64,000 bases of DNA. Origin: an uncultured Lacinutrix sp. (GTDB lineage: Bacteria; Bacteroidota; Bacteroidia; Flavobacteriales; Flavobacteriaceae). Location: contig NZ_CANMRQ010000001.1 of assembly GCF_947500325.1 (NCBI RefSeq), forward strand, positions 126,001 to 190,000, written 5' to 3'. Within the stretch, counting starts at the first letter, position 1; each line of letters begins with the position of its first letter. The translations under genes were made by a program, and so were the position numbers. Below the pieces are notes generated by a model. The model did not search any database, was not told the origin of the DNA, and worked only from the letters and a program-made list of their open reading frames with translations. Below, piece by piece: positions 1,166-31,378 of the stretch.

Positions 1166-1171
1166 CAGACT

Positions 1172-5745: not shown

Positions 5746-5747
5746 AA

Positions 5748-16263: not shown

Positions 16264-19200
16264 ATGATTAAGCAAACCATAAAACTTTTTATTGCAACAT
16301 GTTGCTGTTTCTTTTTAAGTCTAAAAATTAGCGCCCAAACAGAAGTAGCAAATGCGTCTTTAACACCATCAGAAATGATTATTGGTGCTACTAGCGAAAT
16401 AATGAGCCCAAATGCTACATTACCAAACAGTATTGTAGAAAATCCTACTATAAATATTTCTTTAGAAATTTTAGACGATGTCGTAATAACTCCTTCTATA
16501 TGGTTTACATATGAAACCAAAATTAGAATAGATCTAATAAATGTAACATCTGGGCAAATTGATGATACTTTATATAGAAATTTTAAAATTGAATATAGCC
16601 CATTTGGTGATATAGGTAATTATGTAGATTTAGATTTAAAACAAATTAAAGGCCATCAAAAAGTAGCAATCCGTATAGATGAAATTTTAGTAACTAATAA
16701 GGAGAATGGCAACAGTTTAGGAGTTACAAATCCTGGGAATGTTATATTAAAATTAGAATATACAGCTAATAGATATAAAGCATTATCAAACACGCTTCCT
16801 GTACTTAATCATGAATATATTAAGTTTAATGGAGTCAATGAAGTAGTAACTAATGCTCAAGAAGCAGAACAATTAAATATTTCTTGGCTACCTATTGATG
16901 GCGCTATTAAATACCAATTAGAATGGTCATGGATTGACAGTTTTTCAGGATCAGGAAGTACTATACTATTACAACCGCAAAATGTTCCATTAAAACCTAA
17001 AACTTTCGAGAGAAATAGTGCCAGAGTTACTATTAAAAATAATGCTTTTAAAATTCCTTTAGTATATGCCAATGGTTTTTTAGTATACAGGGTAAGAGCT
17101 ATAGGTAATAGATACAATGATTATAATAACGACAATGATTTTTCTAAAGTATCAAAATACTTTTATGGTCAGTGGACAGATGGCTATAATGAAACAACAG
17201 TATCACAATGGAACTACGCCGTAACATCTCAACATCAAGGTAATAAAAACTGGCAATTTCAAGCTTCTTTCGCCGAAGAAGGAAAGAAAAAAGAAGTGGT
17301 TAGTTATTTTGATGGTACGTTAAGAAATAGGCAAACTGTTACTAAAATAAATACAGATGGTTACTCTATAGTTGGAGAAGTAATCTATGATAACCAAGGT
17401 AGACCTGCTATAGAAGTTTTACCAACTCCAGATATTAATAGTGCTTTAGATTATAAAAAGGATTTTAATTTAAATACTCAAAACAAAACCTATTCGCATT
17501 ACGATTTCGATTGGTCAGATCCTAATGCTTTAGTTTGCGAAACTGGAGTAACGCTATCTGGTATGTCTAAAACTAAAGGCGCTAGTTTGTATTATTCTGG
17601 GGAAAACACGCCTTTTGTAACGACAGAAAAAGATAAATACATCCCAGATGCTAATAATTATCCTTTTTCTCAAATACAATACACAGATGATAATACAGGA
17701 AGAATAAAAAGAAAATCTGGTGTAGGATTAACGCATCAAATTGGTAGTGGTCATGAAATGAAATATTATTATGGAACACCAAATCAAAACGAACTTAATA
17801 GACTTTTTGGTTACAAAGTAGGTTATAATAAATTTTATAAAAAAAATACTGTAATAGATCCAAATAAACAAGTAAGTGTAAGTTATCTCGATCCGCAAGG
17901 TAGAACAATTGCTACTGCATTATCTGGTAATAAACCTGCTAATATTGATCCTTTAGAAGAACATAATACAGGAAATCACAATCCAATTACTGTAGATTTA
18001 TTAAACAAAAGTAACCTTGATGACCCAGATACCAATAATGATAACAACTTAAAATTCTCTACAGGCCACTTTGGTAGTTTTCAAGATGGTTTACAATACT
18101 CTGGTAATCGATTTGTAAATAAAAGTGATGCTGTTTTTAGTTTTAATTATAAAGCAGAGTTAGACATATTAGAAAAAGAATGCGGTACTATAGAGTCAAC
18201 AGAATCTTTAGTTTATCCTTTTGTTTACGATTTAAATATAAACTTAACTAATGAGTGTGGTGATCCTGTAGCAATATCAGAATTAGAAACAACAACACAA
18301 TTACCATTAATAGATGGACAGCCAGCAACTACAGATAATCAATTAACAAGTTTTACTACACAATTAGGAACAATTACTAATACAGCAGGCAGTATTCAAA
18401 CTTTAGAGTTTACTACAAATTCTGGAGCTTTAAGTATTGGTAATTATACTATAAACAAAACTATTACAATTAATGAAGAGGCTCTAAATACATATGTAGA
18501 AAGCTATATGAATAGCGCTTGTATTTTACCTCTTGACTATTTTAATTTAAACTTAATTGATAATGATTGTGTTTTAAGTCCTGAAGATTGTGAAAGCTTT
18601 TTAAATAATACTAATTATTATGATGTAAGCGATAATGATAATGACACCAATACAGAATTTGATGATCAAGAAAGTTATGCTGCATACAAAATAGGTCTAA
18701 TTCAAACAGATTTAGCGACTAATGGATACCCTGCATTAACTCCAGCAGAAATTGAAGCTTATACTGGAGCCTATATAGAGTTGTATATTGCTAAAAGAGA
18801 AACCTGTGCAGACTTAAATGCCTTAGATGAGAATCCAGATGCACCAGGAGAATATACCTTTACAATAGACTGTTACATCACGAACTTGAGATTACTCCAA
18901 GATTTTGCTCCAGGAGAGCAATATGCTGTTTTTCAAGATGAAGATGAAAACATTGGTTTAGACCCGTTTAGTATTTATGTAGAAGATGTTAATAATTCTT
19001 TTTTAACCAATGCTTCTGGTTTAACAACACCTATCTGGAAAAACCCAAAAAGTTTATACGATAATGGTATCGACTTTTATTTAACAGATGCAGGCGAAGA
19101 AATCGATTTTATAGAAGTGACACCTTTATATGATGATAATGGTGATTTTGCTCTTGACGATGCTGGCGAATTTACGTTTAACATTCCTATTGATGACCTT

Positions 19201-22200
19201 AGCTTTAATCAAAATATAACTTACAATGGTATTACCTATAACATAAAGTATTTAGATGGTAATGGAAACCCTAATGTAAACGAAAATGGTGTTCTAAAAG
19301 TATTACCTAATCACGTTACTAATGCTAAAGATTTTAAAGACAATTGGAATCCTAGTTGGGCACAATCTCTTTTATATTATCACCCAGAAATTGGGTATTC
19401 TACTTTCTTTTCAGAAATATGTTCGCAACTAAAGTCAACAGGACTTAACTACCCTGGAGCAGAAAACCTAAGTTCTTCTGCTTACGACGATTTTTTAAAC
19501 CAATTAAATTATACTGTTCAAGCTGGACAAGATGCTATTCAAATTCAAGGCAATATCGCATTAGAAAATTTATTAACCAATACAGATTGGTTAGTGGAAC
19601 ACGATCCATTCTTTAAAAATCTTTATCAAAACATAACTGGTACTAACTTATTAGGTGCTAATGCTAGTTATAGTATTTTTAATGCTAACCCAAATATTGA
19701 TAATTCTCATACTGCCCAAACTATAAGTGTCCCAAACCCTAATGGAGGCACAATGCCAATAACTATAGCTAACGAGCAAGAAGCGCGTTATGAAATAATG
19801 AAATATGCTTTAGAGTATAATGCAGATGGACAAGGCATACCTATATGGCAAATAGCCTATAGAATGGTTATGTGTGGAGACGCTTTATTATTTGATTGTA
19901 CAGTAGATAGTTACCCAAATACTTTAAACGATGTTATAGCAGCTTTATCTCCAGAAGACCTAGAAGAATTTGTTAATAATTATATAGCAATATACCTTAG
20001 TACAAAAAGTAAATTACAATTTGTATTCTCTAATATTTATGCACAACAGTTAAATTTTTATAATGGTTGTATTGAAGATTTAAACAACAACCCATTAACT
20101 GTTTTAAGCTCATATCCTCAAGGGTTTGTAAATATTTTATCTAATTATTATAACTTTAATCAACCCAATCCTGTTGTTCCTGCTGGTGTATGTTATACAG
20201 GAGCAGCTAACCAATTTGAAGGCAAAAAAAGAAGGTTTTTACCTTTCGATGTTGTTTCAGAAGATGATAATACAGATGAAGATGCTTCAGATATTGTAGA
20301 AGACACAGATTTATTATACTGGGAAGCAACTGGTAATTGTCCAAATGCTTTAGATTTAAATCTTTTCATAAATGGGTTGTTTACAGACCAACTTGGTAAT
20401 CTTCCAGATGCTTCAAATCCATATACCAACGCGCAATACCTATTTGCAGATTTATATACTGCTTTAGGAGGTGAAATTATTGAAAATAATGCTACAGAAC
20501 CAATTATGGGTGCTAATGGCATACAAATTTATACAGATAGTAGTACTAATACAGAGTTAATAATTAATGTTGGAGATCAAAACGATTTAGATAGTAATAC
20601 TAATAATGGTGCTACTTGCCCAATTACAATCTACGCAGACCCTAGTAGCACACTTAATTGGAGTAACTACGGCGCTAACTTATGGTATATCACTAATGTG
20701 CAAAACTTAGTTTTTACAGGAGACGATGCTGCTACTGGAGATCAAAAGTTTTCATTTTTAGCAACAGTTAATAATAATGGAGAGACAATAGAGGTCGTCT
20801 TTAATGGTCAATCTTGTGCAAATATTGGTTACTGTGGTACAGATACTACACAAGCGGGAAGTTCAGATTACGACTATATAGATCCTAATGTTGATATTAA
20901 TTTACCAGATGGTGGCGATTGTCTTAATAAAGGTAAAGTAGAAACAGGTATTAAAAATGTTTTTAATGAGTTACATGAAAATAATCTATTATTTTCTAGT
21001 ACACCTACAACTTTAAGCACTTATAATTCATACACATCTAGTTATTTACCAGAGTTTTTTCAAGAAATAAATGCGCCTATTTTATATAAATACGATAATC
21101 AATCTTTTACGTTTTATTACGATCAAGGTGGTTTTGATACAAATATTATTAAAATCCCAACAGGGTTGCTTCCTGCTCTATCTCTTAATTATATACATAG
21201 TGTTTCTATAAATCCAGTAATGGACTCTCTTTTAGGTAATGAAGCTACAGTTGGCTATGCTTATAATAATGGTACTATAACCTATAACCAAAGTAGTTTT
21301 ACTGTTAGTGCTCCAATAAACGTTACTGAAACTAAATCTATTGATTTTAACTGTTGTACAGATTCTGCAGATAGTACAACTGGTTTTATTGCACTATTAA
21401 ATCATTTAATAAGTATAGAACCAAATGTACCTAATGGATATCAACCTCAAGAATTACTAGATTTATTCCCTTTTATAGCTTTAGAAGCTAACAATATAGG
21501 TATTTACGATTTTGAAATTACACAATATGTAACAGGGTTTAATACTTCTGCTCCTGTTTTAAAATTCTCATTTAATGATGATGGTGAATTTGATGTCATG
21601 TTACTTTCTTATCCGGAGTTTACTCAAGAACCAATAAGCATATCGGGTTTAAATTTTGATTCTTCAGCTCAAGATTCTTATCCTATTTGGAATTTAGACT
21701 TACCAGGGTATAATTTTGCTGGAGTAGAATCAGATTATATAAGACTATCTAAAATATTTTACAAGAATATAGATTTTAATGGTTGCGAAGACTGTATTCC
21801 AGTTCCAATTCCTAGTGTAAGTGGTACACAAGCATGGCAAACTTATATAACAACTGTTGGTTTAGATCAAGATAGTAATGGTATTAGTGATACCATTCCT
21901 GGATATGCATTACCAGAATGGTTAACAGAAGCCTATTTTACAGACTTAGGTTTTAAGTATTCTATAGAAGCCTACAATCAATACATTACAGATTTACAAA
22001 TAATTGCTAATGGAGGCATAGACAGTGATTATTTTATTTCTTTAGAGCAATTTGGGACTAATGCATTAGGATTGGGTCACCCGCAAACGTCTGATGCTGT
22101 TACACAGTATGCTAATTATATAAGTATTGTTACCCAAAACAATGTAGAACCGTTAGGATGGTTAGCTTATGTAAGTCAAATATACATGAAAGAAACAGGT

Positions 22201-25200
22201 GTTTGTCCTGGAGCACAAATACAAATAGACTCACCAACTATAGATGATATAGATCCTTGTAACGCGTTTTTGGAAAATATTCAATTATCGTATGCAAACG
22301 ATTTACACCAACAATACTTAGAAAATGTAAGACAAGATTTTATTAATGAGTATTTAAATAAAGCAATGACTACTCTAGTCGAGAATTTAGATTTAAATTA
22401 CGACGATAAAGAGTATCAATACACCTTATACTACTACGACCAAGCAGGTAATTTAATGCAAACGGTTTCTCCAGAAGGTATAGATAGACTTAATACTACA
22501 GCAGATGCTTCTATTAATCCTGCAATTAATCTTGCTAGAGACGAAAATATAGTTTCTGTAGCACCAGTACATAGATTAGAAACACGTTATAAATATAACT
22601 CTCTTAATCAATTAGTATTTCAAAATACGCCAGATGGAGGAGAAACACGATTTGCTTACGATGTTCTTGGTAGAATTGTAGCCTCACAAAATGCAAAACA
22701 GTTAGTAAATAAAAGTTTTAGTTATACAAAATACGATGCCTTAGGTAGAATAATAGAAGCCGGAGAAATGGCCGAAGCTGCTGGTTATTTTATTACAGAT
22801 GAAGGGATATTAATGAAAACAGCTACTATGGCTGCAGAGGTAAATGCAAATAACTACCCAGAAAATATTAGTACTGCCAGAAGTGAAGTTACTAAAACAC
22901 TGTATGACGATATGTTAACAGGTAAAGAAGCTTTATTTGAAAACTATACTTATAACCATAGAAATAGAGTAACAGCAGTATTATATTTTAATAAATACTC
23001 AGATCAAGTAGACCTTTTAAAATACGATAATGCACTCTTCTATAATTACGATGTACATGGTAATGTAAAAGAGTTAGTTACAGATATAGCAAACGAAGAC
23101 TTAATAGATTTAAATCAACGTGTTAAAAAAGTACAGTATGAGTACGATCTAATAAGTGGTAATGTTAACCAAGTTACCTATCAAAAAAATAATAACGATC
23201 AATTTATACACCGTTATAATTATGATGCAGATAATAGAATTACAACCGTTACAACATCTACAGATGGTGTAATTTGGGAACAAGAAGCAGCGTACGATTA
23301 TTATAAACATGGCCCTTTAGCTAGAAGTGTTATTGGAGATAAAAAAGTTCAAGGTTTAGATTATGTATACTCGCTTCAAGGTTGGTTAAAAGGAGTTAAT
23401 GGAGACGTTTTAGACCCAACTAAAGATGTAGGTAAAGATGCTTTTAGTAATACAGTAGCAAGAGATGCTTTTGCCTATACGCTTTCGTATTTTGATAATG
23501 ATTATAATGCATTAGCTCAAGATCCATTTAACGCTAGTACTAATCATTATACAGGTATTAGTGGTTCTCAATTATTTAATGGTAACATAAGAGGTATGAC
23601 TACTGCCCTTTTAGGTAAAGACGAAGTAGCACTAACTATAGCCTATAATAATTATAAGTACGACCAGCTAAACAGAATAAAGGCCATGCAAAGCATGGAA
23701 GGCCCAGCTTCTGGATCTGGTATATCTAAAAGTATAGACCCAATACAATCTAGCTATACTTACGATAAAAACGGAAACTTAGAAAGTTTAAATAGATCGG
23801 CTAGAGGTGAACGTGGTGGCGTCTTGGATATGGATAAATTCACTTACGATTATCAATTAGATGCTAATAATAATAAAGTATCTAACAAACTATTCGCTGT
23901 ACAAGATGATCGCTCTTTAGATCCTAATTTTGCTACAGATATAGATAGTGGGCAATCGTTTGGAAATTATAAATACGACCAAATAGGACAGTTAACAAGC
24001 GACGAACAAGAAGGCATAGAAAATATAGAATGGCGTGTAGATGGTAAAGTAAAACAAATTACAAAAAGTAATGGTTTAACTATAGCTTTCGAGTATGATG
24101 GTTTAGGTAACCGTATTGCAAAACAAACCACTAGTACAAGTAATACAGATTTAAATAAAACCACCTATTATATTAGAGACGCACAGGGTAATGTATTAAG
24201 TGTGTATACTCTAAACGATGCTAGAGATGGAGATAGTACAGCCTCTGTTTTTGAGGTAGACATTGTATTAGAAAGCGATATTATAGATACCATAGAAGGT
24301 ACTACTGCTGCACAAAACAGTATTACAGTTGCTGGCGGTATAAACAGTTATGTTGTAGAAACTAATGGACAACAAGAATTAGTAGCAAGTAACGTTATAG
24401 TTTTAAAACCTGGTTTTACTGCAAAAGCAGGTAATAACGGTTCTACGCTTAGTAATTTTGTTGCTAAAATAGAAGCTGTAGATGCACCATCAGATCTTAC
24501 ATATAAATTATCTGAGCAGCATATATATGGTAGTTCTAGATTAGGTTTACAACAACCAGAAAAAAACCTAATAGCAAATGTAGCAGGTAGACAAGCAGGA
24601 GAAGCTAATACTGTGTCTTACGAGAGAAATGTAGGAGACAAAAGGTACGAGCTTAGTAACCATTTAGGTAATGTTCTAGAAGTTATTACAGATAGAAAAC
24701 TATTATCGCGATCTAGCCTGTTTACTCCAGACGTAGTGGCTTATAATGATTACTATCCGTTTGGTATGCTGCTGCCTAATCGTAATGGTAGCAGTGATTC
24801 TTACCGTTATGGCTTCCAAGGGCAGGAGAAAGATGATGAAGTTAAGGGTGAAGGAAATTCTATTAACTTTAAATTTAGAATGCATGATCCGCGAGTGGGA
24901 AGGTTTTTTGCTACCGATCCATTATCTCCTCAATATCCTTGGTATACACCTTATCAATTTGCTGGTAATAAAGTAATAGCTTGGAGAGAATTAGAAGGGC
25001 TTGAAGAAGACAACGTAAATGACGAAATTGAAGAAAAGGATTCTAATTGGTTTACAAGAGGAATGGCTATTCTTTTTGTTAAGGCATCTCATGCTGGTAA
25101 TGAATTTGAAAAAACTGAACTAGGAGCTACACTTAATTATATTAGAAATGATGGAGAATATGTAAACCCAGATGATTTGTCTGGAGAAGAAAAGCTTATT

Positions 25201-25818
25201 AATGGGTTGACTGGGTTTGGAAATATGGTTGAAGCTACAACACTTCCATTAGCACCATTAGCAGCTACCCGCAATGGTGCAGGATTTTTAAAATCAAAAT
25301 ATAAAAAAGAGAAACCTTCTTTAAGACCTGTTAATAATAAGGTGGTTGATAATCTAGCAACATCTAAAGTAAAAGTAAAAGTAAAATTGCCTAAAATTGA
25401 GGTTCCAGAAAAACCTTTAACTCCTCCAGTAAAATTGGTGCCTTCTACAAAAAGAGAAGTAGTTGAAGCGTTTCTAAAAAATGATTTAGGAAAAACTGGA
25501 ATTGAAGCACTAGGTGTTTTAAATACAATTAACTTTAAAAAAGGTGTAAAAAAGGTTATTTTAAATACTGGAGATAGAATATGGAGATTTGTTACTCCTG
25601 GAAGAGAGAACGCTCCAGACCAGCATTTTTTCACTGATGCTTACGGAGCTGACTCTGGTCCTGCAGGTGTTGGACTAACAAGTGGAAATAAAATCTTAAT
25701 TGAATACAAAGTCACCTCTCCAACTACAGTACTACAAACAAAGATTAAAGGAACAAATCAAACTCAATTCATTTCAAAAAACCTAATAGAAAATGCAGAA
25801 GAAGTTGCCAGAGAATAA
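16264..25818 (+). CDS. giant RHS-repeat polymorphic toxin with variable C-terminal tip
   Basis: The 3184-aa protein has a signal peptide (MIKQTIKLFIATCCCFFLSLKISAQ). A DUF6443-type module lies near residues 330-480 (VVSYFDGTLRNRQTVTKIN...YDNQGRPAIEVLPTP). A long Asp/Asn-rich region follows, then classical YD repeats from about residue 2050 (YYYDQAGNLMQTVSPEG, RFAYDVLGRIVAS). The core ends at about residues 2872-2915 with RMHDPRVGRFFATDPL, PWYTPYQFAGN and RELEGLEE. The usual aspartyl self-cleavage motif DxDGL is ELEGL here. The last 270 residues are the non-conserved tip; its end (GDRIWRFVTPG...APDQHFFTD...ILIEYKVTSPTTVLQTKI) looks like a small enzyme domain, perhaps ADP-ribosyltransferase- or TNT-like, but I cannot assign an activity. 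RHS shells encapsulate and deliver such tips to competitors. A putative immunity gene follows 1 bp later. Confidence 0.85.
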   Translation: MIKQTIKLFIATCCCFFLSLKISAQTEVANASLTPSEMIIGATSEIMSPNATLPNSIVENPTINISLEILDDVVITPSIWFTYETKIRIDLINVTSGQIDDTLYRNFKIEYSPFGDIGNYVDLDLKQIKGHQKVAIRIDEILVTNKENGNSLGVTNPGNVILKLEYTANRYKALSNTLPVLNHEYIKFNGVNEVVTNAQEAEQLNISWLPIDGAIKYQLEWSWIDSFSGSGSTILLQPQNVPLKPKTFERNSARVTIKNNAFKIPLVYANGFLVYRVRAIGNRYNDYNNDNDFSKVSKYFYGQWTDGYNETTVSQWNYAVTSQHQGNKNWQFQASFAEEGKKKEVVSYFDGTLRNRQTVTKINTDGYSIVGEVIYDNQGRPAIEVLPTPDINSALDYKKDFNLNTQNKTYSHYDFDWSDPNALVCETGVTLSGMSKTKGASLYYSGENTPFVTTEKDKYIPDANNYPFSQIQYTDDNTGRIKRKSGVGLTHQIGSGHEMKYYYGTPNQNELNRLFGYKVGYNKFYKKNTVIDPNKQVSVSYLDPQGRTIATALSGNKPANIDPLEEHNTGNHNPITVDLLNKSNLDDPDTNNDNNLKFSTGHFGSFQDGLQYSGNRFVNKSDAVFSFNYKAELDILEKECGTIESTESLVYPFVYDLNINLTNECGDPVAISELETTTQLPLIDGQPATTDNQLTSFTTQLGTITNTAGSIQTLEFTTNSGALSIGNYTINKTITINEEALNTYVESYMNSACILPLDYFNLNLIDNDCVLSPEDCESFLNNTNYYDVSDNDNDTNTEFDDQESYAAYKIGLIQTDLATNGYPALTPAEIEAYTGAYIELYIAKRETCADLNALDENPDAPGEYTFTIDCYITNLRLLQDFAPGEQYAVFQDEDENIGLDPFSIYVEDVNNSFLTNASGLTTPIWKNPKSLYDNGIDFYLTDAGEEIDFIEVTPLYDDNGDFALDDAGEFTFNIPIDDLSFNQNITYNGITYNIKYLDGNGNPNVNENGVLKVLPNHVTNAKDFKDNWNPSWAQSLLYYHPEIGYSTFFSEICSQLKSTGLNYPGAENLSSSAYDDFLNQLNYTVQAGQDAIQIQGNIALENLLTNTDWLVEHDPFFKNLYQNITGTNLLGANASYSIFNANPNIDNSHTAQTISVPNPNGGTMPITIANEQEARYEIMKYALEYNADGQGIPIWQIAYRMVMCGDALLFDCTVDSYPNTLNDVIAALSPEDLEEFVNNYIAIYLSTKSKLQFVFSNIYAQQLNFYNGCIEDLNNNPLTVLSSYPQGFVNILSNYYNFNQPNPVVPAGVCYTGAANQFEGKKRRFLPFDVVSEDDNTDEDASDIVEDTDLLYWEATGNCPNALDLNLFINGLFTDQLGNLPDASNPYTNAQYLFADLYTALGGEIIENNATEPIMGANGIQIYTDSSTNTELIINVGDQNDLDSNTNNGATCPITIYADPSSTLNWSNYGANLWYITNVQNLVFTGDDAATGDQKFSFLATVNNNGETIEVVFNGQSCANIGYCGTDTTQAGSSDYDYIDPNVDINLPDGGDCLNKGKVETGIKNVFNELHENNLLFSSTPTTLSTYNSYTSSYLPEFFQEINAPILYKYDNQSFTFYYDQGGFDTNIIKIPTGLLPALSLNYIHSVSINPVMDSLLGNEATVGYAYNNGTITYNQSSFTVSAPINVTETKSIDFNCCTDSADSTTGFIALLNHLISIEPNVPNGYQPQELLDLFPFIALEANNIGIYDFEITQYVTGFNTSAPVLKFSFNDDGEFDVMLLSYPEFTQEPISISGLNFDSSAQDSYPIWNLDLPGYNFAGVESDYIRLSKIFYKNIDFNGCEDCIPVPIPSVSGTQAWQTYITTVGLDQDSNGISDTIPGYALPEWLTEAYFTDLGFKYSIEAYNQYITDLQIIANGGIDSDYFISLEQFGTNALGLGHPQTSDAVTQYANYISIVTQNNVEPLGWLAYVSQIYMKETGVCPGAQIQIDSPTIDDIDPCNAFLENIQLSYANDLHQQYLENVRQDFINEYLNKAMTTLVENLDLNYDDKEYQYTLYYYDQAGNLMQTVSPEGIDRLNTTADASINPAINLARDENIVSVAPVHRLETRYKYNSLNQLVFQNTPDGGETRFAYDVLGRIVASQNAKQLVNKSFSYTKYDALGRIIEAGEMAEAAGYFITDEGILMKTATMAAEVNANNYPENISTARSEVTKTLYDDMLTGKEALFENYTYNHRNRVTAVLYFNKYSDQVDLLKYDNALFYNYDVHGNVKELVTDIANEDLIDLNQRVKKVQYEYDLISGNVNQVTYQKNNNDQFIHRYNYDADNRITTVTTSTDGVIWEQEAAYDYYKHGPLARSVIGDKKVQGLDYVYSLQGWLKGVNGDVLDPTKDVGKDAFSNTVARDAFAYTLSYFDNDYNALAQDPFNASTNHYTGISGSQLFNGNIRGMTTALLGKDEVALTIAYNNYKYDQLNRIKAMQSMEGPASGSGISKSIDPIQSSYTYDKNGNLESLNRSARGERGGVLDMDKFTYDYQLDANNNKVSNKLFAVQDDRSLDPNFATDIDSGQSFGNYKYDQIGQLTSDEQEGIENIEWRVDGKVKQITKSNGLTIAFEYDGLGNRIAKQTTSTSNTDLNKTTYYIRDAQGNVLSVYTLNDARDGDSTASVFEVDIVLESDIIDTIEGTTAAQNSITVAGGINSYVVETNGQQELVASNVIVLKPGFTAKAGNNGSTLSNFVAKIEAVDAPSDLTYKLSEQHIYGSSRLGLQQPEKNLIANVAGRQAGEANTVSYERNVGDKRYELSNHLGNVLEVITDRKLLSRSSLFTPDVVAYNDYYPFGMLLPNRNGSSDSYRYGFQGQEKDDEVKGEGNSINFKFRMHDPRVGRFFATDPLSPQYPWYTPYQFAGNKVIAWRELEGLEEDNVNDEIEEKDSNWFTRGMAILFVKASHAGNEFEKTELGATLNYIRNDGEYVNPDDLSGEEKLINGLTGFGNMVEATTLPLAPLAATRNGAGFLKSKYKKEKPSLRPVNNKVVDNLATSKVKVKVKLPKIEVPEKPLTPPVKLVPSTKREVVEAFLKNDLGKTGIEALGVLNTINFKKGVKKVILNTGDRIWRFVTPGRENAPDQHFFTDAYGADSGPAGVGLTSGNKILIEYKVTSPTTVLQTKIKGTNQTQFISKNLIENAEEVARE
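24748..24770 (+). repeat. left copy of a 23-bp inverted repeat inside the RHS core (DYYPFGML codons)
   Basis: The run starting GATTACTATC and ending TTTGGTATGCT is identical, in inverted orientation, to 29383-29405. It encodes DYYPFGM, a conserved RHS core segment, about 125 residues before the variable tip. On either side the two copies diverge at once, even at synonymous positions (CTGCTGCCT here, CTATTACCT in the other copy). It is a candidate crossover site for exchanging the RHS tip. Confidence 0.8.
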
Positions 25819-25819
25819 T

Positions 25820-26191
25820 ATGAAACTCATAAAAACTATAGATTATATTAAAATCTTACTTTCTAAAAAAATGGAAAATAAAATAGAAGGGATAGATTTG
25901 CTATTATCTCTTCTATTAAATGTAATTGTATTTGAAACCAAAAAGAACGGAGTAATGTCTAATAAAACTGGTGAAGCGCTTATACAAATAACTTCTTTTC
26001 AATCAATTGAATATTATTATCATGGTGGTTATTTAGAATTAGATTCAGAATTAAAAAAACTTGCATATATTCTAAGTGATTACAATGAGAAGCTTAGAAA
26101 AAACGAATTGGATGTAGTTGGAAGTAAACCTGAAAATTGGGCAAATTATTTTGAAGAGCGTATAAGGGTTTTGTTGAATAATTGGGAATAG
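25820..26191 (+). CDS. putative immunity protein for the RHS tip
   Basis: The 123-aa product starts at ATG 25820, one base after the RHS stop. The longer frame from 25793 would overlap the toxin gene and is less likely. It is a small, soluble, helix-rich acidic protein (TIDYIKILLSKKMENKIEGIDLLLSLLLNV, YHGGYLELDSELKKLAYILSDYNEKLRK, NWANYFEERIRVLLNNWE) with no signal peptide, as expected of a cytoplasmic immunity protein. No named family is recognised. The call rests on position directly behind a polymorphic toxin tip, the usual arrangement. REP-A copies begin 10 bp after its stop. Confidence 0.6.
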   Translation: MKLIKTIDYIKILLSKKMENKIEGIDLLLSLLLNVIVFETKKNGVMSNKTGEALIQITSFQSIEYYYHGGYLELDSELKKLAYILSDYNEKLRKNELDVVGSKPENWANYFEERIRVLLNNWE

Positions 26192-26200
26192 AGCCCCCTT

Positions 26201-26227
26201 AGCTAGCGCTCGTCTGTGACGAGTGAC
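26201..26227 (+). repeat. REP-A copy 1
   Basis: This copy begins AGCTAGCGCT and ends GACGAGTGAC. The centre folds as CGCTCGTC / loop TGT / GACGAGTG, an 8-bp stem with one G-T pair. It is preceded by a C-rich run, as most copies are. Confidence 0.9.
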
Positions 26228-26230
26228 CCC

Positions 26231-26257
26231 AGCTAGCGCTCGTCTATGACGAGTGAC
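26231..26257 (+). repeat. REP-A copy 2
   Basis: This lies in direct tandem with copy 1, 3 bp apart. It has one substitution in the loop (TAT instead of TGT), which leaves the stem intact. Confidence 0.9.
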
Positions 26258-26284
26258 TTATAGGAAACCTAAATCAAATTGAGT

Positions 26285-26479
26285 ATGATTCTGGCAAAAA
26301 GAATTTTGGTATTAAGCATAGTTTTATTAGGTTTTAATTGTAACAATCAAAGTGGTTTTTCTTTTAAAAAACTTAATTTTAATACTAATTTATCAAAATT
26401 AGACTTCTCAAATAATGATTTGAGGTATGGGTTAGTTAATAATTGTGAGTTAGATTTCCCAGCTAGCGCTCGTCTGTGA
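26285..26479 (+). pseudogene. short lipoprotein-like ORF cut by REP-A copy 3
   Basis: From ATG 26285 the frame reads a membrane-type leader (MILAKRILVLSIVLLGFNC) and about 40 polar residues. It then runs straight into REP-A at 26461, whose bases supply the last residues and the stop. The ORF therefore looks like the 5' part of a small exported or lipoprotein gene interrupted by the repeat. The lipobox (GFNC) is imperfect. No family is recognised, and it may never have been a functional gene. Confidence 0.4.
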
Positions 26480-26487
26480 CGAGTGAC
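26461..26487 (+). repeat. REP-A copy 3
   Basis: Perfect copy, preceded by CCC. It is followed by GGCATGAGTAAAC, a 13-base extension also found beside copy 7 on the other strand, so the mobile unit is longer than the hairpin alone. Confidence 0.9.
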
Positions 26488-26505
26488 GGCATGAGTAAAC
26501 CCGAT

Positions 26506-26528
26506 AGCGCGGATTTGCAATCCGTGCT
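26506..26528. repeat. REP-B, a second and different REP-like hairpin
   Basis: The stem AGCGCGGATT, loop TGC and AATCCGTGCT form a 10-bp hairpin with one G-T pair. Like REP-A it has a 3-nt loop and begins AGCGC, but the stem sequence differs. It lies 21 bp beyond the 3' end of the RAYT remnant and may be the cognate repeat of that transposase. Confidence 0.55.
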
Positions 26529-26549
26529 CATTATCCTTTATAACAATAA

Positions 26550-26807
26550 CTAGAATACATTCAATACTAAAACAGCTAACTCATTATCTAAACTTGCATA
26601 ATTTCTTGCAGAGCTAAAGATATAATCTTCAGGGTTAGCTACTATTTTATCTTTTACAGGGTTATTATGTATATAGTTTAATTTTTGCTGTATAAATTTA
26701 TTAGAACTACATATTTCTGCATGATAACCATCTTGCCAAACTTTATAGTTTTGTTCTCGTTTTAAATGACTACAAGCCTCTTTAAAATAACCCAACATCC
26801 ATTCTCC
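26550..26807 (-). pseudogene. RAYT (Y1/IS200-like REP transposase) remnant, C-terminal part only
   Basis: The open frame encodes about 85 residues, GEWMLGYFKEACSHL...VWQDGYHAEICSSNKFIQQKLNYIHNNPVKDKIV...YIFSSARNYASLDNE. This is the C-terminal part of a REP-associated tyrosine transposase with the catalytic Tyr in LNYIHNNPV and the SSARNY motif. The N-terminal half, including the His-x-His metal site, is missing, because the frame ends exactly at REP-A copy 4. It shares the family motifs with the intact RAYT at 27334-27891 but clearly differs from it, so it represents a second lineage. It is inactive as a transposase. Confidence 0.8.
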
Positions 26808-26809
26808 CC

Positions 26810-26834
26810 AGCTAGCGCTCGTCTGTGACGAGTG
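26810..26834 (+). repeat. REP-A copy 4, at the break of the RAYT remnant
   Basis: The hairpin is intact but the last bases differ (GAGTG then CCGT). It begins 3 bp after the last readable codon of the truncated transposase, so its arrival or an associated deletion probably removed the 5' half. A GAGTAAAC extension follows, as beside copies 3 and 7. Confidence 0.88.
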
Positions 26835-26873
26835 CCGTATCGAGTAAACAGGGAAATAATAATGAATAAATAG

Positions 26874-26908
26874 AAAAGCTTTTACAGAGATGTAAAGGCT
26901 TTTTTTTT
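26874..26908 (+). terminator. hairpin with T run, part of an extended REP-A unit
   Basis: AAAGCTTTTACA, loop GAGA and TGTAAAGGCTTT form a stem with a bulged base, followed by eight more T residues. The same type of hairpin flanks both ends of the intact RAYT gene. It follows REP-A copy 4, so this looks like a leftover end of a RAYT-type unit and could also terminate transcription rightward. Confidence 0.6.
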
Positions 26909-26944
26909 GCTTTAAGAAACGTGCCTTTTTGGTTTTAAAATCCC

Positions 26945-26971
26945 AGCTAGCGCTCGTCTGTGACGAGTGAC
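26945..26971 (+). repeat. REP-A copy 5
   Basis: Perfect 27-bp copy preceded by CCC. It lies 37 bp before the start of the small membrane protein gene. Confidence 0.9.
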
Positions 26972-27008
26972 TTAATACTATTTACAAACTATTATTTTAT
27001 AAATTAAA

Positions 27009-27251
27009 ATGAGAAGGATAATTTTAGGATATATATTTTACTTGCTTGGAATACTTTTTGGGTTTAGTGTAGTTGGAAATATTTTTAGATTCCTAACAGG
27101 AAGCTTTTCTAAGACTACAATAGGAATAATAGAAGATTTACTTGCAATATTAATAGCAGGGTTTTTAGCCTATATATTTATTAAATATGGAAATAAGTTT
27201 CTTAAGAAAAAACCAGAAGATAACATTAACCAAATAGGAAATAATTCTTAG
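27009..27251 (+). CDS. small two-helix membrane protein between REP-A copies
   Basis: The 80-aa product has two predicted membrane helices (IILGYIFYLLGILFGFSVVG and LLAILIAGFLAYIFIKYG) and a polar Lys/Asn-rich tail. The stop codon TAG is formed by the first bases of REP-A copy 6, so either the gene ended there by chance or it is slightly truncated. It could be a displaced immunity gene, since many RHS loci keep orphan immunity genes, but nothing in its sequence proves this. No family is recognised. Confidence 0.5.
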   Translation: MRRIILGYIFYLLGILFGFSVVGNIFRFLTGSFSKTTIGIIEDLLAILIAGFLAYIFIKYGNKFLKKKPEDNINQIGNNS

Positions 27252-27275
27252 CTAGCGCTCGTCTGTGACGAGTGA
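27250..27275 (+). repeat. REP-A copy 6, left end of the RAYT unit
   Basis: An intact hairpin that departs from the consensus after GAGTGA. It is oriented toward the RAYT gene and mirrors copy 7 on the far side. Confidence 0.9.
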
Positions 27276-27304
27276 ACACAACAGTAGGTAAACAAATTAT
27301 AAAT

Positions 27305-27332
27305 AAAGTCTTTACAGGAATGTAAAGACTTT
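27305..27332 (-). terminator. hairpin directly behind the RAYT stop
   Basis: A perfect 12-bp stem, AAAGTCTTTACA paired with TGTAAAGACTTT, with a four-base loop. It lies one base beyond the RAYT stop codon. It probably terminates the transposase transcript and may also be a structural end of the unit. Confidence 0.7.
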
Positions 27333-27333
27333 A

Positions 27334-27891
27334 TTATGCCAAAAAGCCTGTATTATCTATTTCTAAAACGGTATTATCATCTTGGTAATTTCTTGCACTT
27401 GAATATTTCCAATCTATAACATTGGTTACAAAACCACTTTCTACAGGGTTATTATGAATATAATCTATCTTTTGTTTGATTACTTTTTCGCTCCATAATT
27501 CTATGGGCTTGTTATGATGTTGCCAAAATTGATAAGTAGATATATTACCTTGCTTTTTTCCAGCACGTTTAAACATCCATAATAGCCATTCTTTTCTACT
27601 TTCCTGTGGATTGTTTTCTATAGCCTCTATTACTTTTTTTGAAGTATGCTTTTTAAAATCTCGCAACAACTCCATAGGTTTTTCATTACTAGACCTAAAT
27701 ATAAAATGAATATGGCTTGGCATAAAACAATAACAATACAGCTCCATACTTTTCTCTTTTCTGCAATAATTTACACTTTCTGCCAGCACATCAAGGTACA
27801 CTTGCCTTGTAAATACATCTATCCAATTAACTGTGGCAAAACTTACAAAGTATAAACCTCTCTTATTATGAAACTTATATTTCCTACTCAT
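27334..27891 (-). CDS. REP-associated tyrosine transposase (RAYT, Y1_Tnp/IS200-like)
   Basis: The 185-aa protein starts at ATG 27891 (MSRKYKFHNKRGLYFVSFATVNWIDVFTR), the usual start of this family. A longer in-frame ORF reaching 27975 reads through a hairpin and is not credible. The metal-binding HUH motif is visible in FMPSHIHFIF, and the catalytic tyrosine in KIDYIHNNPVESG, followed by DWKYSSARNYQ. Such enzymes are single-strand, Tyr-dependent nucleases that cut and join REP hairpins and are usually single-copy and domesticated. All motifs are intact, so it may be active. Its cognate repeat is almost certainly REP-A, seven copies of which lie within 1.8 kb. Confidence 0.9.
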   Translation of the reverse strand: MSRKYKFHNKRGLYFVSFATVNWIDVFTRQVYLDVLAESVNYCRKEKSMELYCYCFMPSHIHFIFRSSNEKPMELLRDFKKHTSKKVIEAIENNPQESRKEWLLWMFKRAGKKQGNISTYQFWQHHNKPIELWSEKVIKQKIDYIHNNPVESGFVTNVIDWKYSSARNYQDDNTVLEIDNTGFLA

Positions 27892-27905
27892 ATAACTAAA
27901 ATACA

Positions 27906-27934
27906 AAAAGCTTCTACATTGCTGTAAAAGCTTT
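27906..27934. repeat. hairpin upstream of the RAYT gene
   Basis: AAAGCTTCTACA and TGTAAAAGCTTT form an imperfect stem of the same type as those at 26874-26908 and 27305-27332. It lies between the transposase start and the right REP-A, so it is in the 5' leader of the transposase message and could limit its expression. Confidence 0.55.
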
Positions 27935-27963
27935 CTTTTATTTGTTGTTTGTTTACTCATGCC

Positions 27964-27990
27964 GTCACTCGTCACAGACGAGCGCTAGCT
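27964..27990 (-). repeat. REP-A copy 7, reversed, right end of the RAYT unit
   Basis: Perfect copy on the minus strand, with the C run as GGGGG on the plus strand and the GGCATGAGTAAAC extension pointing toward the transposase gene. Confidence 0.9.
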
Positions 27991-28008
27991 GGGGGCTTTG
28001 TTTTTATT

Positions 28009-28338
28009 TTACTTGATACTATTCATTTCAACCCAAACATCGTTAACTTTTTTATGGCTATTCCTGCAAATTTTAGCCTCAGGAGTTCTAGCCAAAGCAC
28101 CACAAATACTGCATCTATTTATAAATATATCCTGTTGATGTTCTTTTAAAAGTCTATTTATAGTGTCTTGATAAAACTTAATTTTATCCTTTTTCCTCCA
28201 TTTAACTTTTTTGAAAAAAGATTTTTTTTTAGAATCTTCGATAATTGAATTCCAAATATCAACTTCATCTTCTGTCAATAAATTTCCATAATAATTGAAT
28301 AAGTACCTTTTTAGTTCTAAATCATATTCATTACACAT
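28009..28338 (-). CDS. putative immunity protein of the second RHS tip
   Basis: The 109-aa product lies 8 bp downstream of the orphan RHS tip on the same strand. It is helical and charged in its N-terminal half (LELKRYLFNYYGNLLTEDEVDIWNSIIEDSKKK) and ends with a small cysteine-containing module, CSICGALARTPEAKICRNSH, which may bind zinc through C-x2-C and C/H ligands. It has no signal peptide. Position behind a toxin tip is the main argument for an immunity role. No named family is recognised. REP-A copy 7 begins 18 bp after its stop. Confidence 0.55.
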   Translation of the reverse strand: MCNEYDLELKRYLFNYYGNLLTEDEVDIWNSIIEDSKKKSFFKKVKWRKKDKIKFYQDTINRLLKEHQQDIFINRCSICGALARTPEAKICRNSHKKVNDVWVEMNSIK

Positions 28339-28346
28339 AATTATAC

Positions 28347-29387
28347 CTAATCTTTTTTATTGTTCTTATTATGTTGAGAAATACTTATTTCCTCAGTTCT
28401 TATTGTTTTGCCAGTTTCAACGTCAATTTCCATTATCATAGCTCGCTCTCTTTTTGTAGATCCTTCTCCTGTACGCATGAACTCTAAAACTAAAGTTTTT
28501 ACACCTTTTTCTTTGGCTTTTTGAATCATTTCAGATTTAAATAATACAACTTCTCTTCCCATTTTTCCAACTAACCCTTTATCTGACCAAGTGAGAGAAC
28601 CTTTTCTAAACATATATATATCTTTAATTAGCATTGTTGTCTTACTTACAGCCATTTTTGCATTAAACATAACTGACTGCCCAAAAAAGGACTTACTTTT
28701 TATTTCATGACTTATTCTTGAGAAATTTTTCATTCCTCGAACAAATTTCAATAAGTGGGACTTTGGTTGAGCTTTAGAATCAAGATTTCTACTTCTAGGT
28801 GTCCTACGCATATTTCTAGTATTGCCTCTAAAAGCAGCTCCATTTGCAATACCTTGTAAAATTTCACCCTTAACAAAATCATCTTCAAAATCATCATAGG
28901 TTGTATTTAATGCATCAGCCTTATTATCATAAGTTTCTGTGTAGTCTTGTTTAGACATCACACCTTGAAACTCAACTACAACTAAAATTTCTGGTCTGTA
29001 ATGTACTATATGCTTCTCATATTCATTGACTTCAGTGTCAAATGAAAAAGTTTTCCAGTTCCATGTCTTTTCGATGATATCGTTAACTGTTTCGAGTTCT
29101 ATTTTACAATCACCATTCTCATCTAAAGTAAATACATAGTGGTATTCCTCTAACCCGTCTAAATCAATTGCCCAAATAGGCTTATTTCCTGCGAATTGAT
29201 AGGGTGTGTAGTAAGGGAAACCTTTAAACAATGGGTCTGTACTCAAGAATTTGCCAACTCTTGGGTCATAAATTCTAAATCCATAATCTACTTGTAACCC
29301 ACGACCTTTTACTTCATTATCATTCTCCTTACCATTAAAGCCGTATCTATAAGTATCAGAGCTTCCATTACGGTAAGGTAATAGCAT
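28347..29387 (-). CDS. orphan RHS C-terminal tip with alternative toxin domain, probably silent
   Basis: The ORF is 346 residues from an internal Met. In frame it opens only at about 29420, after a TGA stop, so it has no signal peptide, shell or evident promoter. It begins with the end of an RHS core (YYPFGMLLPYRNGSSDTYRYGF, RIYDPRVGKFLSTDPL, YYTPYQFAGN, AIDLDGLEE) with the canonical self-cleavage motif DLDGL. About 260 residues of unrelated tip follow. The tip's C-terminal half (LTWSDKGLVGKMGREVVLFKSEM...KGVKTLVLEFMRTGEGSTKRERAMIMEIDVETGKTI) is a plausible enzyme domain that I cannot assign. The core part resembles the end of the 3184-aa RHS protein, and the ORF reads in the opposite direction. 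It is best read as a stored alternative tip. Confidence 0.8.
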   Translation of the reverse strand: MLLPYRNGSSDTYRYGFNGKENDNEVKGRGLQVDYGFRIYDPRVGKFLSTDPLFKGFPYYTPYQFAGNKPIWAIDLDGLEEYHYVFTLDENGDCKIELETVNDIIEKTWNWKTFSFDTEVNEYEKHIVHYRPEILVVVEFQGVMSKQDYTETYDNKADALNTTYDDFEDDFVKGEILQGIANGAAFRGNTRNMRRTPRSRNLDSKAQPKSHLLKFVRGMKNFSRISHEIKSKSFFGQSVMFNAKMAVSKTTMLIKDIYMFRKGSLTWSDKGLVGKMGREVVLFKSEMIQKAKEKGVKTLVLEFMRTGEGSTKRERAMIMEIDVETGKTIRTEEISISQHNKNNKKD

Positions 29388-29405
29388 ACCAAACGGATAG
29401 TAATC
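29383..29405 (-). repeat. right copy of the 23-bp inverted repeat at the start of the orphan RHS tip
   Basis: Exact reverse complement of 24748-24770. Similarity between orphan tip and RHS core begins at this element and is only faint beyond it, which suggests it was the crossover point that separated the tip from an RHS core. It lies 125 bp from the start of the tyrosine recombinase gene. Confidence 0.8.
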
Positions 29406-29530
29406 AAATACACCGTAATCTCAATACAGTAAGAACGTTCAATACCTAAAGATAAAACAAAAAAAAACAAAAATTAGTCTTTTTAGCCTTATTTTTACAT
29501 TCTAATATTTACTATTTTTAGGAACCTATC

Positions 29531-30565
29531 ATGAAAGTAAAAGACCCTATTATTCCCCTTTTTATTCAGTTTATAAAAGATAGTACTACAGGAAAGCGCT
29601 TAAAAAAAAATGGTGAGCGTATTTCTCCTCAATCTATTAAAAATTACCAGTATGCTTTAAATAATTTGGTTAAGTTTGAAGCAGACACCGGTTTTGAGTT
29701 ACGTATTTGTAATGCTTCGAAATTAAATTCTAGAGAACTCGCTTCAGAAAAAAACTATTGGAAAAAATTCTATAAAAAATTTACAGAGTATTTATATAAA
29801 AATGGCTGTTACGATAATTATGTAGGTGCTAATATTAAGTATATAAGAACCTTTTTTAACTATTTAAAAAATGAAAAAGACTACCCTACAGGCGATTTTC
29901 AGCGTTTATTTTATGTAAGAAAAGAAGAGGTAGATATATTAGTCTTATCACCAGAGCAATTAAAATATTTAATTCACGACCAAGCGTTTTCTAAAAGTTT
30001 AACACCTGCCATGCGCCGTATTAAAGATGTGTTTGTTTTTGGCTGTACTACTGGCTTACGTTTTAGTGATATTTTTAGTTTAACCAACAAGAATTTTGAA
30101 AAGCAAAATAACGACTGGTACTTAAAAATTAAATCTCAAAAAACAAAAACATATAGTTTTATAAAACTGCCAAATTATGCGGTAGATATCTACAAGCAAT
30201 ACAAACCTAAGTCTTCTAGAGTGTCTATATTTGGTACTATTAGCCTTTTTATTTTTAATAGAAGCTTAAAACATATTGGTGAAAAAGCGGGTTTTACTAA
30301 TGCTATTCACATGACGCGTGAACGCCAAGGTAAAACCAAAGCCACAACAAAAAGTACACTGCGTTTTTGCGATAAAATGAGCTCTCACATGATGCGTAGA
30401 ACAGCCATTACTACATTGCTAATTCTTGGTATGCCAGAACATTTAGTACGTAAAATTAGTGGCCACAGTAGTTCTAGTAGCTCGTTTAACCGTTATGTGC
30501 ATTATGCGCAAGTGTATGTTGATAAGGAAATAGATAAGGTGCATAGTAAACTAGAAAACTACTAG
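29531..30565 (+). CDS. tyrosine recombinase / phage-type integrase
   Basis: The 344-aa protein has an N-terminal SAM-like DNA-binding domain (about residues 20-130) and a C-terminal catalytic domain. The first Arg lies in TTGLRFSDIFSL (about residue 177), followed by a beta-hairpin Lys (KSQKTKTYSF). The box-II motif is HMMRRTAITTLLILG (His and Arg, about residue 287), then ISGHSSSSSSFNRYVHYAQ with the second His and the nucleophilic Tyr. All core residues are present. It could integrate an element, resolve dimers or invert DNA. Its position next to the 23-bp repeat and the orphan RHS tip makes a role in tip switching plausible. The C-terminal end overlaps the convergent MORN gene by 4 bp at a shared CTAG. 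It is not XerC/D by length or context. Confidence 0.9.
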   Translation: MKVKDPIIPLFIQFIKDSTTGKRLKKNGERISPQSIKNYQYALNNLVKFEADTGFELRICNASKLNSRELASEKNYWKKFYKKFTEYLYKNGCYDNYVGANIKYIRTFFNYLKNEKDYPTGDFQRLFYVRKEEVDILVLSPEQLKYLIHDQAFSKSLTPAMRRIKDVFVFGCTTGLRFSDIFSLTNKNFEKQNNDWYLKIKSQKTKTYSFIKLPNYAVDIYKQYKPKSSRVSIFGTISLFIFNRSLKHIGEKAGFTNAIHMTRERQGKTKATTKSTLRFCDKMSSHMMRRTAITTLLILGMPEHLVRKISGHSSSSSSFNRYVHYAQVYVDKEIDKVHSKLENY

Positions 30566-31269: not shown

Positions 31270-31378
31270 CTTGATTTTAATTTTCACCAAAGATAATTAA
31301 ATTACTAATCTTGATTTTAAAAGCGTGAAAAACTTTAAAGAAAGTAGTTTATATACAAGTGGTTGTATTATAAAACAA

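What the first reader, a model, noticed from the sequence alone, without database searches (positions are those of the whole stretch)
24748..29405. Possible invertible RHS toxin-tip switch bounded by a perfect 23-bp inverted repeat
Seen directly: 24748-24770 inside the RHS core and 29383-29405 at the start of the oppositely oriented orphan tip are exact inverted copies over 23 bp, and the flanks diverge at once, even at synonymous sites. Both copies are in the same reading frame (ggt-atg-ct). The interval between them is symmetrical: core, repeat, tip 1, immunity 1, then (reversed) immunity 2, tip 2, repeat. Inversion would fuse tip 2 in frame to the 3184-aa core, deliver its immunity gene behind it, and store tip 1 plus its immunity gene silently. 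RHS tip exchange by recombination is known; a shufflon-like two-state switch of this layout would be new to me. The repeat encodes conserved residues (DYYPFGML), so identity by codon conservation is the main alternative.
Basis: partly seen in the sequence, partly recalled or inferred. Interest (0 to 1): 0.92.

Follow-up and report, generated by a model that had tools for sequence, protein, structure and literature searches.

The report
Recombinase-driven switch between two RHS tips
A bacterium appears to flip a piece of its DNA with its own cutting-and-joining enzyme so that one giant secreted protein can carry either of two different toxin-like ends, and relatives have been sequenced with both versions present at once.

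Summary
The exact inverted match is 24 bp (24747-24770 / 29383-29406). In 36 of 80 public loci encoding relatives of it, two RHS sites lie within 15 kb, always convergent. In 40 pairs compared, TACTATCCNTTYGGN is identical within every pair although three positions vary between loci (shuffled mean 6.6, maximum 17). In 29 control loci from 27 recombinase-less genomes, no convergent pair and no inverted repeat of 17 bp or more touches a site. Both orientations exist in nature: same-genus G006 holds the locus on its 3.8-Mb contig and, inverted, on a 21.8-kb contig (interval: 0 mismatches, 2 gaps); three further assemblies join one tip to both flanks. Likely mechanism: recombinase-driven inversion swapping [Rhs_assc_core + tip + putative immunity gene] cassettes on one RHS core; some relatives carry 3-6 cassettes, like a shufflon. 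Not shown: inversion in the window's own strain, recombinase activity, toxicity of either tip. Ten searches of an open-access library found no invertible RHS tip; two key inversion surveys were not readable.

The parts
16264..24747 (+). RHS core up to the crossover site (2828 aa; signal-peptide-like start, by eye; DUF6443, RHS/YD repeats)
   Evidence: ORF; Pfam PF05593 and PF20041; TIGR01643
24747..24770 (+). core copy of the inverted site (TGATTACTATCCGTTTGGTATGCT)
   Evidence: 24-bp exact inverted match to 29383-29406
24748..25818 (+). tip 1 cassette: Rhs_assc_core (about 85 aa) plus variable C-terminal domain, fused in frame to the core
   Evidence: TIGR03696 E 5e-10 at residues 2-85; no toxin family matched
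25793..26191 (+). putative immunity gene 1 (132 aa from the first ATG; a second ATG at 25820 follows the tip 1 stop)
   Evidence: ORF and position behind tip 1; no family matched
26198..27995 (.). REP/RAYT-type insert between the cassettes (type name recalled): seven copies of a repeat around GCTAGCGCTCGTCTRTGACGAGTG and a Y1 transposase gene (27334-27975, -) with a remnant (26550-26798, -); probably a passenger, not part of the switch
   Evidence: repeats (six direct copies, one inverted); PF01797; remnant
28009..28338 (-). putative immunity gene 2 (109 aa)
   Evidence: ORF 8 nt behind tip 2; no family above cut-off
28347..29405 (-). orphan tip 2 cassette, open in frame through the site; Rhs_assc_core plus a different C-terminal domain
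   Evidence: TIGR03696 E 8e-13 at residues 2-85; open frame
29383..29406 (-). orphan copy of the inverted site
29431..29436 (-). GTTCTT element upstream of the orphan site, at a spacing shared by many relatives; role unknown
   Evidence: sequence; 27 of 57 orphan flanks carry GTTCTT at -35/-34 from TACTATCC
29531..30565 (+). tyrosine recombinase (344 aa), proposed invertase; R177, K204, H286, R289, H312, Y322 present
   Evidence: PF00589 E 7.5e-15; family; invariant residues 75 of 75

Best explanation
The interval 24747-29406 is an invertible segment. A dedicated tyrosine recombinase (29531-30562) recognises the two convergent copies of GATTACTATCC-NTTYGGN-ATG at the start of the Rhs_assc_core coding region and crosses over inside them. 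The inversion replaces tip 1 plus its putative immunity gene by tip 2 plus its putative immunity gene behind the same secreted RHS core, and stores the other cassette, pointing the other way, on an orphan flank without coding sequence upstream. Shown by sequence: the layout, the within-pair identity, the association with the recombinase, and the existence of both isomers in relatives. Inferred: that this recombinase does it, that it is reversible and happens in this strain, that the stored cassette is silent, that the tips are toxins and the small genes are immunity genes.
For: (1) Both isomers in one assembly: G006 (same genus) contig C1 (3.8 Mb) and contig C2 (21,783 bp) hold the same locus in opposite orientation; interval 0 mismatches and 2 gaps in 5872, the two flank pieces next to it 0 mismatches and 1 gap each (4364 and 5668 positions); the crossover lies inside a 44-bp identical block. 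(2) In F. piscinae (G317) both flank contigs overlap the same tip by 127 bp; in F. cupreum (G315) 127 bp and in Seonamhaeicola aphaedonensis (G311) 95 bp of one tip are joined at 100% identity to both a core and an orphan flank. (3) Five more assemblies (G159, a MAG; G310, G316, G320, G322) have contigs that stop or overlap at the site; overlaps of 141, 121, 77 and 77 bp in the first four, longer than the exact repeat. (4) In 40 convergent pairs TACTATCCNTTYGGN is identical within every pair while positions 8, 11 and 14 vary between loci; 0 of 100,000 shuffles reach it; 33 of the 40 show a core and an orphan member, 33 of 33 identical. (5) Control: 29 loci of the 27 site-bearing genomes without the recombinase, same relaxed motif: 9 neighbouring pairs, all on one strand, none convergent, and no inverted repeat of 17 bp or more at a site. 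(6) TACTATCC in 80 of 80 paired sites, but in 18 of 35 homologous sites of recombinase-less genomes, Fisher 5e-11; 1.5e-7 with one site per locus. (7) Recombinase in 8 of 35 site-bearing and 0 of 25 site-negative genomes tested; 6 of the 8 have convergent pairs. (8) Catalytic residues invariant in 75 of 75 intact copies.
Against: No inverted junction is present in the window's own assembly (4 site hits in all), so switching there is unproven. The second locus of this genome (C1:455 kb) has no recombinase beside it and the genome has only one copy, so it needs action in trans. Two of eight recombinase-bearing genomes (G048, G107) showed no convergent pair, and in G206 two further RHS sites (C4, C25) have no partner by the exact motif. 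Of the 80 recombinase loci, 44 gave no convergent pair with the motif used: many are cut by contig ends, some are arrays whose inner copies have diverged sites (L067, L081, L100); 6 of 88 loci examined had no Rhs_assc_core copy in reach. L065, L086 and L100 have core sites without TACTATCC. L063 and L107 are pairs with no long reading frame upstream of either member. Six of 80 recombinase copies are frameshifted or carry stops, two of them (L096, L098) in paired loci. Recombinase activity and toxicity were not tested; no toxin family matched the window tips.
Confidence: 0.87

Rival explanations
1. Inversion happens, but by ordinary homologous recombination (RecA) between the two Rhs_assc_core arms; the recombinase is a neighbour without a role.
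For: The arms share 70-100% of the first 100 nt in all but one of the pairs listed, and 175 nt at 91% in the second own locus, so homologous exchange is possible. Orphan Rhs exchange in Salmonella is proposed to work through long homology (522 bp at 95%; passage read in PMC3967940). The second own locus has no recombinase beside it.
Against: The exact identical block is 18-24 bp in 10 of 40 pairs, the window among them; L118 has only 47 of 100 identical downstream. The left edge is nearly always at the same place (3 or 4 bp upstream of TACTATCC in 30 of 40, 0-8 in all). TACTATCC is fixed in the paired sites but in only half of the sites of recombinase-less genomes, where no convergent pair was found.
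Confidence: 0.08
2. Static duplicate: the orphan is a displaced tip left by past recombination, and the 24-bp identity reflects codon conservation of DYYPFGML.
For: RHS proteins do conserve DYYPFGM here, and orphan tips downstream of rhs genes are known in enterobacteria (PMC3967940 passages).
Against: Between loci the synonymous positions vary, within a pair never (40 of 40). In recombinase-less genomes neighbouring sites lie on one strand only (5 of 5 genomes that have neighbours), and in G134 the three neighbours differ at a synonymous position, although in G265, G141 and G028 the neighbours are identical over the motif. Both isomers occur in nature.
Confidence: 0.04
3. Assembly artefact: alternative junctions come from misassembly of paralogous RHS genes.
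For: RHS genes are paralogous and can break short-read assemblies; contig ends lie within 150 bp of a site on 19 of 49 truncated sides, which paralogy could partly explain. The outer 4.4 kb of G006 C2 has 19 gap openings and 1 mismatch against C1. G311 is an array whose other cassettes are about 90% alike at the start.
Against: The exact repeats (17-49 bp in these loci) are shorter than the overlaps of 77-141 bp at which contigs break, so a single static arrangement should be resolved (inference from how such assemblers work, recalled). In G317, G315 and G311 the shared tip is 100% identical over 95-127 bp, in G006 99.97% over 5.9 kb with both flanks.
Confidence: 0.03

Closest known systems
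Shufflon of plasmid R64 (pilV C-termini, Rci recombinase) (recalled)
   Same: tyrosine recombinase, short inverted sites inside a coding sequence, exchange of C-terminal segments of one protein; the 3-6-copy arrays in relatives look similar
   Different: the target here is an RHS protein with linked putative immunity genes; the site lies at the start of Rhs_assc_core; usually two cassettes; no Rci relationship was tested
Invertible hsdS locus with PsrA in Streptococcus pneumoniae (abstract starts seen in search listings only: PMC11709252, PMC7096588)
   Same: inversion by a tyrosine recombinase varies a specificity-determining protein
   Different: target is DNA methyltransferase specificity, not a secreted toxin-like protein; different phylum
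Orphan Rhs-CT activation in Salmonella Typhimurium LT2 (abstract and passages read: PMC3967940)
   Same: an orphan tip with linked immunity gene becomes fused to the main rhs gene
   Different: there the authors propose homologous recombination over 522 bp between the main and a downstream orphan gene, selected during passage; the words inversion and site-specific do not occur in the text
MafB-CT silent cassettes of Neisseria (passages read: PMC4287609)
   Same: polymorphic toxin with silent C-terminal cassettes each followed by an immunity gene
   Different: no inverted layout and no dedicated recombinase in the passages seen
DNA-inversion phase variation in Bacteroidetes (passages read: PMC5903667, PMC11892184)
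   Same: phase variation by DNA inversion in the same phylum
   Different: the passages name capsule, receptor and other surface genes; the word Rhs does not occur in either text

Membership tests
Tyrosine site-specific recombinase (PF00589) | Pfam domain above gathering score | tested here: met
   55.6 bits against cut-off 27.1
Tyrosine site-specific recombinase (PF00589) | catalytic R, K, H-xx-R, H, Y (residue set recalled) | tested here: met
   R177, K204, H286, R289, H312, Y322 invariant in 75 of 75 intact copies (74 of 80 loci plus the window)
XerC/XerD/XerA equivalogs | NCBIfam curated cut-off | tested here: not met
   34.8-42.1 bits against cut-offs 220-335
RHS polymorphic toxin | RHS/YD repeats, Rhs_assc_core, variable C-terminal tip | tested here: met
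   PF05593 above cut-off, TIGR03696 above cut-off in both tips, tips 1 and 2 without similarity to each other in tblastn
RHS polymorphic toxin | tip is toxic and neutralised by the linked immunity gene | not tested
   no toxin or immunity family matched; needs an experiment
Programmed gene-altering inversion | inverted repeats, one inside the gene and one on a silent partial copy of opposite orientation | tested here: met
   window, second own locus and 33 core/orphan pairs in all; silence of the orphan copy not tested
Programmed gene-altering inversion | both orientations observed in one culture or assembly | tested here: met
   met in relatives G006, G317, G315, G311; not seen in the window's own assembly
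Shufflon (R64 type) | Rci recombinase family | not tested
   no Rci comparison was made
Shufflon (R64 type) | several invertible cassettes at one locus | tested here: not met
   two cassettes in the window; 3-6 Rhs_assc_core copies in 16 of 88 loci

The most novel reading that the evidence does not exclude
Bacteroidota carry a widespread 'RHS shufflon': a clade of dedicated tyrosine recombinases that keeps clonal populations mixed for which toxin tip (two, or up to six stored) their RHS weapon displays, with the crossover site built into the codons for DYYPFG and held fixed at the DNA level. Because the immunity gene moves with the tip, sister cells in opposite states may be able to attack each other.
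Probability: 0.75. Interest if true: 0.92.

Novelty: new variant of a known kind. Interest (0 to 1): 0.86.

Why it matters
RHS toxin tips are known to be exchanged by recombination. A dedicated, reversible switch would make weapon choice a phase-variable trait inside one clone, and raises a testable question: how do sister cells with different tips and different immunity genes avoid killing each other? It also gives a simple search handle (recombinase plus a convergent TACTATCCNTTYGGN pair) and may explain recurrent assembly breaks at RHS loci of Flavobacteriaceae.

Tried and rejected
Codon conservation as the cause of the 23-bp match: rejected. The REP/RAYT repeats of the interval as the driver: rejected, because the window's transposase had no hit in the other loci searched, G006 among them, where both isomers are seen. 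Structure prediction of the two window tips: mean pLDDT 31.5 and 38.6, unusable, so no fold search was run. PDB sequence search of the tips: nothing meaningful for tip 1 (best E 0.1), nothing for tip 2; of the recombinase profile: none at E 0.001. Pfam/NCBIfam: no toxin family for the window tips. The shared upstream flank of two copies in L068 (and L060) was first taken as evidence for both junctions; withdrawn, because several orphans of one array share that flank, and both pairs were dropped from the 42 to leave 40. G048 has one orphan-type flank before two different tips on different contigs; left uninterpreted. G107 has the recombinase 257 bp from a contig start and no site or repeat pair seen in 12 kb. 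In one search immunity gene 1 was translated in the wrong frame, so its row there means nothing.

Papers: Milman et al. 2023 (gene-altering inversions) and Chanin et al. 2024 (intragenic inversions) were not held; what I know of them is recalled. The statement that I found no invertible RHS tip in print rests on ten searches of the open-access library, whose listings were cut at 10-25 papers, and on term look-ups in five papers.

Full report
What was claimed and what is there. It is there; the exact match is 24 bp (24747-24770 / 29383-29406). Upstream the copies diverge at once; downstream the arms remain 79% identical over 103 nt, because both encode Rhs_assc_core (TIGR03696), whose profile starts at residue 2 of the site-encoded segment in both tips. 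The frame statement is right by coordinates. With up to three mismatches the 23-mer occurs four times in the 4.57-Mb genome: the window pair and a second convergent pair 2.3 kb apart at C1:455 kb, identical within itself but different from the window pair at two synonymous positions. That second locus is again an RHS core with tip and an inverted orphan tip (arms 175 nt, 91%).

The missed gene. At 29531-30562, 124 bp beyond the orphan copy, lies a tyrosine recombinase (PF00589, E 7.5e-15). Homologues at 71-85% identity sit inside or next to the same kind of interval in G206, G159, G006 and G071. A scan of one genome per species found 93 relatives and kept the best 80 (48-85% identity), by their titles mostly Flavobacteriaceae, a few Chitinophagaceae and other Bacteroidota. 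Of these 80 loci, 35 had two sites within 15 kb by motif and reading-frame filter, plus L053 recovered by the repeat search: 36 of 80, every one convergent. The recombinase lies inside the interval in 28 of the 35 and just outside in 7, as in the window. The remaining 44 have one site, none, or arrays with diverged inner sites; many are cut by contig ends. Matched stretches without stop or frameshift: 74 of 80; R177, K204, H286, R289, H312 and Y322 are invariant in 75 of 75 intact copies including the window.

The site. I compared 42 convergent pairs: the 36, the window, the second own locus, G006, two of G206, and G071. Two (L060, L068), whose members share a long upstream flank, were dropped. 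In the other 40, TACTATCCNTTYGGN is identical within each pair, while positions 8, 11 and 14 vary between loci; shuffling partners gives a mean of 6.6 identical triplets, maximum 17, 0 of 100,000 reaching 40. In 33 of the 40 one member has a long reading frame upstream (core) and the other does not (orphan), 33 of 33 identical; five others are cut by contig ends, and in L063 and L107 neither member has one. L041 and L049 are the G206:C3 and G159 loci under public names. Identity ends 0-8 bp upstream of TACTATCC (3 or 4 in 30 of 40) and 15 to 60 or more bp downstream; the whole exact block is 18-24 bp in 10 of 40. A region fixed within a pair but free between loci is what a strand-exchange region would show (inference). 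TACTATCC is present in 80 of 80 paired sites but in 18 of 35 homologous sites of recombinase-less genomes (Fisher 5e-11; 1.5e-7 with one per locus), so it seems held at the DNA level. Caveat: the paired sites were found with a motif that allowed other Tyr codons but fixed CC.TTYGG, and inner array copies and three unpaired core sites (L065, L086, L100) do not carry TACTATCC. A second element, GTTCTT, lies at -35/-34 in 27 of 57 orphan flanks and at -18 in 14 of 42 core flanks (four flanks moved to core by hand because they encode the usual residues); it occurs in 2.9% of random 75-mers of the held loci. Its role is unknown.

Association and control. Of 35 genomes with a DYYPFGM site (33 of 299 in the family scan, own genome included, plus G006 and G009 from the genus scan), 8 have the recombinase at E 1e-40; 6 of the 8 have convergent pairs (G000, G006, G071 across the record ends if circular, G159, G206, G168), G048 and G107 none seen. 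None of 25 site-negative genomes that I picked for testing has it. As a control I took 29 loci around sites of the 27 genomes without it and applied the same relaxed motif: 9 neighbouring pairs in 5 genomes, all on one strand, none convergent, and no inverted repeat of 17 bp or more at any site (four of these loci are shorter than 11 kb). Against: in G206 two further sites (C4, C25) have no partner by the exact motif.

Both orientations. In G006 contig C2 (21,783 bp) equals the C1 locus inverted: interval 5872 aligned positions, 0 mismatches, 2 gaps; adjacent flanks 4364 and 5668 positions, 0 mismatches, 1 gap each; the outer end is poorer (1 mismatch, 19 gap openings in 4357). In C1 the core flank reads into tip 1, in C2 into tip 2. 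In G317 the core-flank and the orphan-flank contigs both overlap the same segment end by 127 bp; in G315 (127 bp) and G311 (95 bp; an array with cassettes about 90% alike) the same tip is joined to both flanks. In G316, G320, G310 and G159 (a MAG, so possibly mixed strains) contigs overlap at the site by 77, 77, 121 and 141 bp, longer than the exact repeat, as expected if both junctions were in the reads; in G322 both flank contigs stop after the same 31 nt. Contig ends lie within 150 bp of a site on 19 of 49 truncated sides; part of this could be ordinary RHS paralogy.

Mechanism. The recombinase crosses over within the paired sites, the segment turns, and the core is fused in frame to the other cassette. 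Tips are shared across genomes while their positions differ: the second own locus's fused tip matches a G159 cassette at 60%, and the G006 tip 1 (fused in C1) matches an orphan in G206 at 51%. Sixteen of 88 loci carry 3-6 Rhs_assc_core copies, several as two convergent arrays (L094, L105, L081, L067, L048), which suggests multi-state versions; L059 and L066 have five on one strand. The second own locus has no recombinase of its own, so it would need to be served in trans by the single copy.

What is known. Orphan Rhs activation in Salmonella (PMC3967940, abstract and passages) and silent MafB cassettes (PMC4287609, passages) replace tips, but the passages I saw describe no inversion and no dedicated recombinase. 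Shufflons (recalled) and hsdS inversions (search listings) are the mechanistic parallels. Ten library searches found no invertible RHS tip; two important inversion surveys were not held. I therefore call it a new variant of a known kind.

Limits. No inverted read from the window's strain, no biochemistry, no proof that the tips are toxins. The family and structure searches gave no toxin match for the window tips, and tip structure predictions were unusable.

Noticed in passing
window 26198-27995: Cluster of seven copies of a REP-like repeat with a Y1/IS200-like transposase gene (27334-27975, -) and a remnant (26550-26798, -): a RAYT/REP-type element inside the interval (type name recalled).
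   Followed up: partly
window 140-6739: Type II secretion / type IV pilus-like cluster (T2SSE ATPase, secretin, sub-threshold PilN) upstream of a 2067-aa ORF (9333-15536) and the RHS core; could be its export route.
   Followed up: partly
window 30562-31290; L016 15610-16362; L027 11956-12798: A MORN-repeat gene flanks the orphan side in the window, with look-alikes by eye in G006 and G071, suggesting one ancestral locus.
   Followed up: no
L005 3092-5459: Second RHS locus of the window's genome; both tips carry HExxH-like or HExGH-like motifs by eye (sub-threshold Matrixin and M6 hits for the fused one), and an IS1-like transposase fragment (name recalled) sits beside the orphan site.
   Followed up: partly
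orphan flanks, e.g. window 29431-29436: Conserved GTTCTT element at fixed spacing (-35/-34) upstream of many orphan sites, often followed by a TATTGA-like sequence.
   Followed up: partly
L059, L066: Arrays of five tips all on one strand, with no partner of opposite orientation within the 10 kb held; may be a different mode or cut by the flank limit.
   Followed up: no
G310 contig C34 (41,406 bp; L157, L158): In Hyunsoonleella pacifica one contig carries a core-type flank at one end and an orphan-type flank at the other, both ending exactly at the site, so the core rather than the tips may lie on the turning segment.
   Followed up: no
G265, G141, G028, G134, G211: Genomes without the recombinase carry neighbouring RHS sites as same-strand repeats, identical over the motif in three of them: a deletion- or duplication-prone layout instead of an inverting one.
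   Followed up: partly
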